Assembly (NCBI GenBank): GCA_009602725.1
Contig: WELB01000257.1
Location: 22,686 to 52,463, forward strand
Source: Spirogloea muscicola
Taxonomy: Eukaryota > Streptophyta > Zygnematophyceae > Spirogloeales > Spirogloeaceae
DNA length: 29,778 bases
Reading direction: 5' to 3'
Under the pieces are notes generated by a model, which was not told where the DNA came from, ran no database searches, and was given only the letters and a program-made list of their open reading frames with translations. Below, piece by piece: positions 265 through 28,710 of the stretch; position 1 is the stretch's first letter, and every line of letters begins with the position of its first letter. The position numbers and the translations under genes are program-made.

Positions 265-2761
265 CCCAGCTGTCGCGCGAACTGCTGGAGGAGAGGCTGG
301 CGCGCGCGCGCCCGCCGGCGGTCGCCGGCTGCGCCGGCTACTCCGAGTACCGCGGCACGCTGGCCTTCCGCCAGGTGGGCCGCCGCCGCTGCCAGCCCTT
401 GAGGTTTTTAATTTACCAGTACAGGATCGATTCTTGGATGCTGAGCTTTGAGGGAGTACGTGTTTACGGGTTTAGGGTTTAGTTTTGTCACAATAGCAGT
501 GTAGGATCGATTCTGAGATGCTGGGCTTTGAGGGCCTTTCTTCACTGCGCAGGCTGTGGCCGCCTTCATGACCACGGCTCTGGGCACGTCGGCGCCGCTG
601 GGCGCCGACGACCTCGTCTGCGTGGCTGGCGCGAGCGCCGCCGTGGAGCTCCTGGCGATGGCGATCGCCGACCCCGGTGATGGGTTCATCGTTCCAGCGC
701 CATACTATCCTGGGTACTGGTCTTACTACTAACCCTTTCACCCTTATGCAAGTTAATGGAGCTTTTGCTCAAGCCGTCAATGCTGGGTACTGCTCATACC
801 ATAGACCCATTTACCCTGATTGCAAGATAATGGAGCTTTTGCTTAAGTGATACTACTCTTACCATAGACTTATTCACCCTTATGCAAGATAATGGAGCTT
901 TTGCTCAAGCGGTTACCCCTGGGTACTGCTCATACCATAGACCCATTCACCCTGATTGCAAGGTAATGGAGCTTTGCTCAAGTACTATCCTGGGTACTGC
1001 TCTTACCATAGACCATCATGCCTGTATGCAATATATTGGAGCTTTTGCTCAAGCCAGGTATTAGTTGCTTAATGTAAGTTAAAATAATTTTGTTTTGGCG
1101 GCAGCTTTACAGTGGACCTGGGAAGCCGGTCGGGCGTGGAGCTGCTGCCGGCGGCGTCAGAAGCGGCCGACAGGTTTGCGGTGCGGCGGGCGGCCCTGGA
1201 AGCGGCGCTGGCCGCCGGAGCGGCGCGCGGAGTGGCGGCGCGGGCCGTCCTCTGGAGCTCGCCGTCCAACCCATTGGGCACCACGCTACCCGCCGACACC
1301 GTCGCCATGGTCATCGCCTTCTGCCGGCAAGCCTTCGCCCCACTCCATGGCTGCTGACGCTGGCCGGGTTTGCAGTTGGTCTTGGCGGCCACCTTGGCAG
1401 CTGCTGACTGCACTCTGACCATCGCCAGCTACCATTGTGGTACCTGACGAGGACCAGCGGAGGGTCTTCGCTACCGCCAATAACACAGGGACCATGACCT
1501 GCACTTCATCTCGGACGAGGTATACGCTGCATCCACATTCGCACCGCCAGCGTTCGTATCAGCGCTGGATGTCGCTGAGCCGCGCGATGCGCACCGCGTC
1601 CACGTCGTGTACGGCCTCGCTAAGGTGCGTCTGATCAGGCTCAGAGTGACTCAGATCTTCCAATTCAATTTGAATTAAGGAAACTTCATTTTCTTGTTAC
1701 TGTAGGAGGGCTAACAGGAATCAGGGATCAGGACCTCCGGTGTGGGTAAACCTTCAACCCTAGCCCTGAAGTAAAGCCCACCTCCTAACTTACCCAAATT
1801 ATGAGCAGATGGCTTGAGCTGGAGGCAACTGATGGCAGCAACTAATTGACCTATTTAAGGTGCTCATTTGTGGTGGCAGGACCTAGGTGTTCCGGGCTTC
1901 CGCGTGGGCGTCGTGCACACGCGCCACAGTGGTGTGCAGTCCATGCTCGCCAGGCTGGCCCGCTTTCACTCGCCGTCGTCGCACACACAGGCGACGCTTG
2001 TGGAGGTCCTGACGGACGCCCACTTCATGTGCAGCTACTTCAAGGTATGCCAGTCCACCGGGACTGTAAGGTCTTGGAAGCTCCTCACAACAGCACTCGT
2101 GTTTGGACAACTGGGTGTCCACACAATCTGCTTACGCTTAGCAATTAGAGTTCGGGTCTAGGTATTTGGTTAGGTACATGCTTGAGGCTGCGGCATCATG
2201 GCAACTTGATCACCCAGGCTTTCTTGACCTCATAGCTTTTTTCTTGGGAGCGCAAAGGACAGTTGGGCATTTAGGGATGACTTTGGGCTTGAGCGTCTGT
2301 TTGTCCCAGTTCTCAACAGATGCTTCTTCTACAAAATCTCATGAATGATCCTAATGAAGCAGCAGAGTGCTCTCTTTCCTACTTCACCTAGAGGCTGAAG
2401 TTGACCTCTTGCATTAAATTTTTTACCTTGCTAAATTATATTGCAGGAAAACCGGCGGCGGCTGCGTGAGCGGCGAGAAGTTTTGGAGCGCGGCTTGACG
2501 CTGGCTGGCGCACACTATCTGCCGGGCAACGCCGGCCTCTTTGTATGGGCCAACCTCGCAGCCCTGTGGCCGGCAGCCTGCGATGAGGCGGAGCTCTTCC
2601 GGGCGCTCCTTGTGGGCGCCGGCGTCAATGTGACGCCCGGCGGCAGCGCCGGCTGTGCCGAACCCTTTTGGTTCCGCATCTGCTTCGCTGCGGCTGGCGA
2701 CGAGGAGCTTGCTGAGGGCCTCCACCGGCTCCTGGAGTTTGGCACTCGCCACCGGTTCTAG
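265..2761 (+). CDS. ACC-synthase-like PLP aminotransferase, 5' partial
   Basis: This encodes a fold-type I PLP enzyme most like 1-aminocyclopropane-1-carboxylate synthase, which makes the ethylene precursor ACC from S-adenosylmethionine in the cytosol. The model is 265-374, 553-713, 1105-1326, 1489-1624, 1880-2044 and 2447-2761, with matching phases (0, 2, 2, 0, 0) and about 369 codons. Motifs in order are GYSEYRGTLAFRQ, VPAPYYPG, SSPSNPLGTT (substrate/PLP loop), FISDEVYAAS (Asp for the pyridine N and Tyr), GLAK/DLGVPGFRVG (Schiff-base Lys), NAGLFVW and FRICFA (carboxylate-binding Arg). The N-terminal part carrying the family's GLAEN motif would lie left of the window, so the first exon's acceptor at 264 is a guess. 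Intron 3 uses a GC donor. The C-terminus stops soon after FRICFA, without the long tail that carries phosphorylation sites in type I/II enzymes. ACS-like aminotransferases (ACS10/12 type) are an alternative, but DEVYA and GVPGFRVG favour true ACS. Confidence 0.85.
419..534 (+). repeat. Intron 1 direct duplication
   Basis: Two about 36-bp copies (near 419-454 and 499-534) share AGGATCGATTCT and ATGCTG(A/G)GCTTTGAGGG, 80 bp apart. They lie inside intron 1 of the ACS-like gene. The DNA between them contains a plant telomere-like GGGTTTAGGGTTTAG. Confidence 0.7.
711..1057 (+). repeat. Intronic minisatellite, about five 64-73 bp units
   Basis: Intron 2 of the ACS-like gene is largely a tandem array. 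Units begin near 711, 784, 848, 920 and 991. They share TGGGTACTGCTC, ACCATAGACCCATT, TATGCAAGATAATGGAGC and TTTTGCTCAAGC, with substitutions and small indels. The first unit begins at the 3' end of the upstream exon and contains the splice donor. Confidence 0.85.
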
Positions 2762-3689
2762 GTCACCGCCTTCGTATGAAAGGCAGTCACCTAAACCCTA
2801 CCCCTAGATCTGCCGTAGCAGAGCACAAATGTGCGTCATGAGATCAAGGTCACAATCTGTTCCATACCCTGTACACATGATTCATGAACAGGCATGGAGA
2901 TTGAACGATCAATTAGTACAATCACATGGGATTTATTTTTTGGCATTTGCCTGCACAAGGAAGGGGATGAACAAGCCTTGCTAAAAGGCCTTCGCTTCGT
3001 CCTGCCACGTTGGTGCTGTGCAACTGACCTGCTAGGAAGCATGCTTTGCCGCCAAGTGTGCCTGTCATGCCGCCAGAAAGTAGTGCTTCCTTGTCCACAA
3101 TGTTGAAGTGCTCCTCGAAACCCAATTTGATTTTTAATTGAATGGTCAAAGGAACTCTGTGAAGTGGGTCCAGTCATCCATTGAAAAAGTGCCAGCTGAT
3201 ACAGCCAGTCCCAAGCCAAGATGATCGTAAATATTTCGCTTCAAACAGCCCAGCAGAGTGTATCATTTCTGCCAATCTACATGCAGGTGGTGAAGCCCAT
3301 GATGCATACGGATCTACTTCATGCTATTGACAACAAATTTTGATGAACTATCTGAGAACTACCTACATGAACCATAAACAGCAGCTAGAAGCAACAATGA
3401 ACGGCGACAAGCTCGCATTGCATTTTATGAAAATAGATTCTCAGAAGCCAAAGGTAAATTCATAGTTGTTAGAAGAAGAATATGTGTGTCATCTGGGCGT
3501 TGCCGAGAAGTGCTTGACTCCGGCAAGCACCTTAAGTCGTTGAAGGCAGAGATGAGCGGAAAGTCGCCGTCCTGCACGGGGTGCTCAATTGTGGAGCTCT
3601 GGGCCAGCTGGGCCACGTCCAACAAGAGAGGATGTCAGCTCCTCCTACTGTCATTTGACTCCAGGCTGAAATCTTATTGACAGTCTACA
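2762..3689. other. Spacer, no gene recognised
   Basis: This lies between the ACS-like stop codon and the copia fragment and is moderately AT-rich. Short open frames exist on both strands (for example 2836-3219 minus and 3486-3680 plus), but none shows a family motif or plausible splice structure. It should include the ACS 3' UTR. Confidence 0.5.
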
Positions 3690-28100: not shown

Positions 28101-28710
28101 CTGTCATAGAACATGGTGGCGCCTTTATGCTCGTCTTCTGCCTGTGCGTTGTCATTTCTGCGAATCTGATGGATGTGGGTACTCTACCTGTTTCCAGCGG
28201 TGACCAGGACTCAGTGGTGCCGTTCCTTGGCACCCGGAGATGGATACACGCCATGCAGATGCCCGTCATCAGCAAGTGGCGGCCATGGGCCGTCGGCGGC
28301 AAGGCACGCCCTCATAAGCTCCGGCTTAAGTTGCCCCAAAAAACCGGCCCTACTCTTTCATCAAGCATGGTTGGCCTCATGACATGGCCCTGACATAACC
28401 TACACTGACTGATATCATCACCAATTAAGGGTCGTTGCTGGCAGCTGACTAGCACCGCCCAATCTTGGGTTGTGGGCACCAGACAGCGGGGTTCGTGACC
28501 GAGTACGCACGCAACTTCTCGTTTGTGACCGTGCGTGGCGCCGGCCACTTTGTGTCCCTCAACCAGCCAGCTCGCGCCCTGAGCATGTTCTCCTACCTCG
28601 TCCACGGCACACCGCTCCCTCTGATCAGCTGTGAGCCTCCCCACGTCCCACTTGCGCATGTGCTCTGCAGCCCTCAGGGATACATCTGTCTGGAGATGCA
28701 AACTTGCTGA
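25187..28710 (+). CDS. Serine carboxypeptidase-like protein (S10), 14 exons
   Basis: This is an S10 family enzyme or SCPL acyltransferase, normally vacuolar or secreted. Exons are 25187-25371 (contains artefact), 25478-25595, 25815-25922, 26029-26121, 26304-26396, 26482-26567, 26695-26802, 27002-27160, 27281-27364, 27540-27596, 27710-27798, 27982-28077, 28198-28303 and 28483-28710. Phases agree from exon 2 on (475 codons with stop). Motifs are RVTGLPGAPSANFS/MFAGYVTV, WLNG/GPGCSSVGGGAL, VYVESPAGVGFSYSDS, GESYAG (catalytic Ser) and HYVPQLA, GVAAGNAL, YLNLPGVQQALHA, IYSGDQDSVVPFLGTRRWI (Asp) and TVRGAGHFVSLNQP (His). The serine triad is complete, so peptidase activity is possible. Introns 4, 11 and 13 use GC donors. 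The ATG at 25187 and signal peptide are provisional because a 62-T run and N break exon 1. The last about 25 residues after PLPLIS may be read-through of a donor (GTGAGC at 28631). Confidence 0.92.
25232..25294. other. 62-nt poly-T run ending in N inside carboxypeptidase exon 1
   Basis: T runs 25232-25293, then one N. It follows (CCG)n and lies where the signal peptide should be, so about 20 codons read as Phe and the frame changes across it. It is probably an assembly error, as at 14293-14642. Confidence 0.85.
25725..25812 (+). other. tRNA-like sequence in carboxypeptidase intron 2
   Basis: Inside intron 25596-25814 there is an A-box-like GAGCTCAGTTAACAGAGTG and, about 40 nt on, a perfect B-box-like GGTTCAAATCC. 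The ends GCCGTC and GGCGGC could pair as an acceptor stem. The anticodon region CTCGCTTACAATCAGAG would give UAC (Val), but its stem and the T stem are poorly paired. It could be a tRNA pseudogene, an organelle-type tRNA insertion or the head of a tRNA-derived SINE. Confidence 0.5.
26835..26867 (+). repeat. (CCCT)n microsatellite in carboxypeptidase intron 7
   Basis: About seven CCCT units are followed by CTCTCTCAG, making a strong polypyrimidine tract and AG 134 nt before the acceptor that keeps the reading frame (27001). It could act as a decoy or alternative acceptor. Confidence 0.75.
27431..27480 (+). repeat. Degenerate telomere-like repeat in carboxypeptidase intron 9
   Basis: CAGGGTTAGGGTACGGGTTA and GGGTGTAGGGTATTGGGTTT are variants of the plant TTTAGGG repeat in a short G-rich block. 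Confidence 0.65.

What the first reader, a model, noticed from the sequence alone, without database searches (positions are those of the whole stretch)
1326..28305. Seven of 42 modelled introns look like GC-AG introns
Family motifs and phases force GC donors at 1327 (ACS-like, GCAAGC), 5902 (SRR1-like, GCAAGC, tentative), 13012 (subtilase, GCAAGG), 18155 (KNOX, GCACGA), 26122 (carboxypeptidase, GCATGT), 27799 (GCACGT) and 28304 (GCACGC). All seven have A at intron position 3, and most follow AG. Plants usually have about 1% GC-AG introns, so roughly one in six across five unrelated genes suggests relaxed or adapted 5' splice-site recognition in this lineage.
Basis: partly seen in the sequence, partly recalled or inferred. 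Interest (0 to 1): 0.75.

Follow-up and report, generated by a model that had tools for sequence, protein, structure and literature searches.

The report
Real GC-AG introns, ordinary splicing machinery
Six introns in four genes of this green-alga window appear really to begin with GC instead of the usual GT; they look like the known minority class of introns found in plants generally, only denser here than expected, and the two splicing RNAs checked are normal.

Summary
Spliced modelling of four window genes gave 33 introns, 32 resolved, 6 with GC donors (1327, 13012, 18155, 26122, 27799, 28304); 5902 (SRR1) stays tentative. Five of the six recur as GC in duplicated copies of the genes; a paralogue has a GT intron exactly at 26122's position; another has uninterrupted exon across 27799 and 28304. 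All nine GC donors of my sample have G-1, A+3, G+5; only 28 of 116 GT donors have A+3 with G+5. U1 and U6 have standard pairing sequences, so adapted recognition is not visible. Outside the window GC donors are 3 of 93 introns, CI 0.7-9.1%, compatible with the plant mean of 1.2% and with several times that. A split by gene class (0 of 53 housekeeping, 3 of 40 other) was made after the fact and vanishes under another grouping (2 of 69, 1 of 24). Best reading: normal U2-type GC-AG introns older than this genome's duplication, clustered here. Far higher shares are already printed for GC-rich algae (PMC3033335).

The parts
1327..1488 (+). GC-AG intron of the ACC-synthase-like gene, CCG|GCAAGC ... 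ACACAG, phase 2
   Evidence: same GC in L058 and L059; gap-free alignment to ACC synthase 7dlw across the junction
12876..13012 (-). GC-AG intron of the subtilase gene, CAG|GCAAGG ... GTGCAG, phase 1, between LDT and GVWPEHPSF
   Evidence: same GC in L057 and L060; gap-free alignment to 7eox
18035..18155 (-). GC-AG intron of the KNOX gene, CAG|GCACGA ... GGGCAG, phase 1, at the end of the KNOX2 domain
   Evidence: same GC in L061; KNOX1, KNOX2, ELK, Homeobox_KN
26122..26303 (+). GC-AG intron of the S10 carboxypeptidase gene, CCG|GCATGT ... CTGCAG, phase 1
   Evidence: paralogue L063 has a GT intron at the same protein position and phase. No duplicated copy of this exon appeared
27799..27981 (+). 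GC-AG intron of the S10 gene, CAG|GCACGT ... TTGCAG, phase 2
   Evidence: same GC in L062; continuous exon in paralogue L064
28304..28482 (+). GC-AG intron of the S10 gene, AAG|GCACGC ... ACCAG, phase 0
   Evidence: L062 has GCATGC; continuous exon in L064; Pfam 132.2 against 123.6 bits for the GT alternative at 28292
5897..5902 (-). tentative GC donor of the SRR1-like gene, GAG|GCAAGC; intron end not fixed, last exon probably near 3490-3600
   Evidence: GC kept and the GT alternative absent in L072; PF07985 SRR1; undecided

Best explanation
They are ordinary major-spliceosome (U2-type) GC-AG introns. The C at +2 costs one base pair with U1, and the site makes up for it with A at +3, G at +5 and G at -1, so U1 with its normal 5' end can still hold the site; U6 then takes over through its normal ACAGAGA box. 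The GC donors are older than the duplication of this genome and have been kept since. The organism is a streptophyte alga, most likely Spirogloea muscicola. Whether such introns are commoner genome-wide than the plant mean is open; the window is at least a local cluster. Shown here: the donors in the DNA, their conservation, the compensating bases, U1 and U6 sequences. Inferred: that the introns are spliced at these sites, the pairing mechanism (established knowledge of GC-AG introns), the cause of the density, and the species name.
For: For the six GC introns compared between duplicated loci (ACS, subtilase, KNOX, two of S10, HSP110), all 14 copies read have GC; the third HSP110 copy was not covered. 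9 of 9 GC donors have G-1, A+3, G+5; GT donors have A+3 with G+5 in 28 of 116, Fisher p = 8e-6; mean match to the consensus CAG|GTAAGT without +2 is 6.2 of 8 for GC and 4.8 of 8 for GT. U1 5' end ATACTTACCTG in 2 of 3 matches, the third being truncated; U6 ACAGAGA in the one copy read of 7 matches. GC donors outside the window in V-ATPase B, HSP110 and, by eye, a GH31 gene.
Against: No transcript was available. The census is small and uneven: 19 of the 40 introns in the 'other' group were read by eye, about nine of them without a fixed acceptor. At 26122 a two-intron GT path is only 12 points worse, so that site leans on the paralogue. A+3 and G+5 are also common in GT donors singly (45 and 88 of 116). 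The difference between window and outside (p = 0.009) is not explained; three of six sit in one gene.
Confidence: 0.82

Rival explanations
1. The lineage has relaxed or adapted 5' splice-site recognition, with GC donors generally tolerated.
For: 6 of 32 in the window; algae with 8-40% GC-AG introns exist (PMC3033335, passages).
Against: U1 and U6 standard; 3 of 93 outside the window, 0 of 53 in the group I called housekeeping; GC donors show a stronger, not weaker, U1 match. Only U1 and U6 were looked at; splicing proteins were not.
Confidence: 0.12
2. The window is a chance cluster in a genome with about the usual 1-2% of GC-AG introns. This is compatible with the best explanation and concerns only the share.
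For: 3 of 93 outside the window is compatible with 1.2% (p = 0.10); with V-ATPase B and HSP110 moved to the housekeeping group, the rest is 1 of 24 (p = 0.25); the window was reported because it looked extreme; three of six sit in one gene.
Against: 6 of 32 has p = 2e-6 at 1.2%; under my first grouping 3 of 40 other introns has p = 0.012.
Confidence: 0.45
3. Model or assembly errors, or decayed genes, make GT introns look like GC introns.
For: GC can be over-called in poor gene sets: 8.9% in one Heterorhabditis annotation against 0.8% in another (PMC5906903, passages). My own first queries produced false GC calls at subtilase intron 0 (Wsbt, L060) and KNOX intron 0 (L061), corrected, and one persistent false GC pick at the unresolved subtilase intron.
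Against: Same donors with open frames in separate contigs, paralogue evidence, Pfam at 28304, and the A+3/G+5 signature, which the modelling does not use.
Confidence: 0.05

Closest known systems
U2-type GC-AG introns of plants (mean 1.2% of introns, PMC6310983, passages; conserved across species, PMC7072748, section 19)
   Same: GC donor, AG acceptor, conserved between gene copies, homologous GT intron in a paralogue; the A+3/G+5 compensation of this class is recalled knowledge and is met here
   Different: local share 6 of 32 in the window; 3 of 93 elsewhere in this genome
GC-AG-rich algae: Aureococcus anophagefferens 39.6%, Micromonas pusilla 22.2%, Chlorella sp. 7.7% (PMC3033335, passages)
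   Same: alga with GC-AG introns beyond the plant mean, at least locally
   Different: fetched loci here 55% GC against 66-70% in the first two; share here lower and not settled
Dinoflagellate introns that typically lack GU-AG ends (PMC5029490, passages)
   Same: GC donors occur
   Different: here GT is 116 of 125 counted introns and U1 is standard

Membership tests
U2-type GC-AG intron | GC at the first two and AG at the last two intron bases | tested here: met
   six window introns, (AG was imposed by the aligner)
U2-type GC-AG intron | compensating consensus G-1, A+3, G+5 (recalled) | tested here: met
   9 of 9
U2-type GC-AG intron | homologous GT intron, or no intron, in relatives | tested here: met
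   GT in L063 for 26122; no intron in L064 for 27799 and 28304; gap-free protein alignment for 1327, 13012, 26122; nothing of the kind for 18155
U2-type GC-AG intron | removed from transcripts by the major spliceosome | not testable with these tools
   no RNA data
U12-type intron | donor (A/G)TATCCTT (motif recalled) | tested here: not met
   donors listed, by inspection
Lineage with altered 5' splice-site recognition | changed U1 5' end or U6 ACAGAGA box | tested here: not met
   one U6 copy of 7 read
Lineage with altered 5' splice-site recognition | genome-wide GC-AG share far above 1-2% | tested here: inconclusive
   3 of 93 outside the window, CI 0.7-9.1%
Lineage with altered 5' splice-site recognition | altered U1C, LUC7, PRP8 or other splicing proteins | not tested
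   not searched

The most novel reading that the evidence does not exclude
A streptophyte alga close to land plants carries 5-15% GC-AG introns in ordinary genes, fixed before its genome was duplicated and purged from highly expressed genes, with standard U1 and U6 and only moderate GC content: a natural case of expression-dependent selection on the +2 base of donors, hidden because gene finders assume GT.
Probability: 0.22. Interest if true: 0.5.

Novelty: new member of a known kind. Interest (0 to 1): 0.3.

Why it matters
If ordinary genes of this alga had several per cent GC-AG introns, annotations that allow only GT donors would break many of its gene models, and comparisons of gene content between Zygnematophyceae and land plants would inherit the error. 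Because genes come in copies, the alga would also allow a replicated test of selection on donor strength. If the share is near 1%, the case is ordinary.

Tried and rejected
First queries for subtilase and KNOX were joined too generously and gave false GC or odd calls at subtilase intron 0 and KNOX introns 0 and 1; corrected queries gave GT. HSP70 as query for the HSP110 genes gave meaningless introns and was replaced. Alpha-tubulin as query for L053, a beta-tubulin, likewise. The subtilase intron about 10771-11197 stays unresolved. Rows dropped before the census, six: hsp70 351 (only in L039), hsp110 570 and 572 (badly anchored), subtilase 383 (unresolved; the aligner had picked GC), S10 222 (artefact in L062), V-ATPase B 36 (class test did not favour its GT). 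Two donor windows (L067, L068) showed no donor and were not counted. The SRR1 introns were not counted. One apparent GT/GC switch between copies (hsp110 572) is a bad anchor. Copies of a gene were counted once. The split into housekeeping and other genes was made after the results were seen; V-ATPase B and HSP110 could as well be housekeeping, which gives 2 of 69 and 1 of 24. A genome-wide count of donor-like words was considered and not done, as the background could not be controlled.
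Full report
What the genome is. The window is G000:C257:22686-52463 of a genome of 153 Mb in 471 contigs. It has KNOX, subtilase, S10 carboxypeptidase, ACC-synthase-like and SRR1 genes (Pfam; 7dlw alignment). Actin and two HSP70 groups come as three copies with the same intron layout on different contigs, and EF1A has four intron-bearing hits and one without introns. The window has partners on C204 and C361 for ACS and subtilase, on C361 for KNOX and on C204 for the second half of S10. This fits the zygnematophycean alga Spirogloea muscicola, whose row in a table reads 174, 84.7, 566.4, 17,449, 95.2 (PMC11096116, passages), which I take as Mb, a percentage, N50 in kb, scaffolds and completeness. 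Its 17,449 pieces do not match 471 contigs unless small ones are left out here. That its genome is triplicated I recall and did not read. The name is an inference.

Is the observation there. I rebuilt gene models with a spliced aligner that treats GT and GC donors alike and then scored each intron under each of the 16 donor dinucleotides. In four window genes 33 introns were found and 32 resolved: 26 GT, 6 GC. GC led the next single-intron dinucleotide by 10 to 16 points. GT-only paths, with free choice of the number of introns, were 12 to 42 points lower, the closest being a two-intron path at 26122. Since the window queries were my own joined exon translations, this is partly circular; the following checks are not.

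Independent checks. Copies on C204 and C361 keep the GC donor: ACS in 3 of 3 copies, subtilase 3 of 3, KNOX 2 of 2 read, S10 27799 and 28304 2 of 2 each. The 131 compared intron pairs average 84% identity in their interiors, with indels. For 26122 no copy of the exon was found, but the S10 paralogue on C1 (L063) has an intron at the same position and phase with a GT donor. The S10 paralogue on C31 (L064) has uninterrupted exon at 27799 and 28304, which fixes those junctions by protein alone. Solved structures align without gap across 1327, 13012 and 26122. At 28304 the in-frame GT alternative at 28292 lowers the Pfam S10 score from 132.2 to 123.6 bits. For 18155 (KNOX) the support is the conserved copy and the consensus only. 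The seventh site, SRR1 5902, is GC in L072 too, where the window's GT alternative is absent, but its acceptor is not fixed and Pfam slightly prefers the GT version (115.8 against 114.6 bits).

How common outside the window. I counted 93 distinct introns outside it, copies once: 53 in actin, three HSP70s, EF1A, two alpha-tubulins, beta-tubulin, eEF2 and CDC48, none GC; 40 in other genes, three GC: V-ATPase B CAG|GCAAGA, HSP110 AAG|GCATGT in two copies, and a GH31 gene GAG|GCAAGC (by eye), where the GC junction scores 57.0 bits in Pfam against 50.6 and 46.9 for two GT alternatives. Of the 40, 19 were read by eye, about nine without a fixed acceptor; for the SDR and RbfA neighbours the family name is recalled, not tested. 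The share is 3 of 93, 3.2%, CI 0.7-9.1%; in the window 6 of 32, 18.8%, CI 7-36%. Window against outside p = 0.009; window against the 40 others p = 0.17; the 40 against the 53 p = 0.08. Plants average 1.2% (PMC6310983, passages): 3 of 93 does not exclude that (p = 0.10); 3 of 40 does weakly (p = 0.012), but the grouping was made after the results were seen, and with V-ATPase B and HSP110 among the housekeeping genes the split is 2 of 69 and 1 of 24 (p = 1, and p = 0.25 against 1.2%). An effect of expression is therefore a hypothesis, not a result.

How it most likely works. All nine GC donors have G-1, A+3 and G+5; of 116 GT donors 28 have A+3 with G+5 (Fisher p = 8e-6). The difference comes from A+3 (45 of 116, p = 3e-4); G+5 alone does not differ (88 of 116, p = 0.21). 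This is the compensation known, as I recall, for GC donors. Two of three U1 matches begin ATACTTACCTG as usual; the third, L003, lacks the normal 5' end and looks like a pseudogene. The one U6 copy read, of seven, has ACAGAGA. So standard U1 and U6 can recognise these sites, and adapted recognition need not be invoked. Splicing proteins were not examined.

What is known. GC-AG introns are a known and conserved minority class (PMC7072748, passages and section 19). Algae with far higher shares are in print: Aureococcus 39.6%, Micromonas pusilla 22.2%, Chlorella 7.7%, which the authors link to GC-rich genomes (PMC3033335, passages). The loci fetched here are 55% GC. A warning case is Heterorhabditis: 8.9% GC-AG in one annotation, 0.8% in a better one (PMC5906903, passages). 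A search for GC-AG with Zygnematophyceae found no paper; one for splice site with Spirogloea found one, on MSH1 genes, seen as a listing only. Subscription papers, among them the S. muscicola genome paper, are not in that library as far as I know and were not read.

Verdict. A transcript-based count decides.

Noticed in passing
window 10771-11197, minus: A subtilase intron does not fit one GT-AG or GC-AG intron: the upstream exon seems to end at TAC|GTGAGT in phase 0, the downstream exon starts in phase 2; copies L057 and L060 behave alike. A GT path with two introns and a small exon scores better than any one-intron GT or GC path, so a micro-exon is likely.
   Followed up: partly
window 4220-5370: Gag/copia-like open-frame pieces on both strands between the ACS-like and SRR1-like genes (by eye); by coordinates partner contig C361 is about 1.7 kb shorter there.
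   Followed up: no
window 14293-14642 and 25232-25293: Pure T runs of 124 and 62 bases, the first followed by 226 N, both next to CCG-rich sequence at gene starts: they look like assembly gaps.
   Followed up: no
window 24917-24988, minus: A tRNA gene (Rfam RF00005, 57.1 bits).
   Followed up: no
L004 and G000:C99:316137-317717: An EF1A copy without introns, and an EF2-like match (40% identity) inside an open frame of 5126 aa, while the relatives modelled here have introns.
   Followed up: no
L062 (C204): The C204 copy of the S10 gene matches only from about residue 195 on; in front of it lies a GH31 gene in the same orientation.
   Followed up: partly
window 3490-3634, minus, and L059: Probable last exon of the SRR1 gene (PLISAFNDL), separated from the rest by the transposon-like stretch.
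   Followed up: partly
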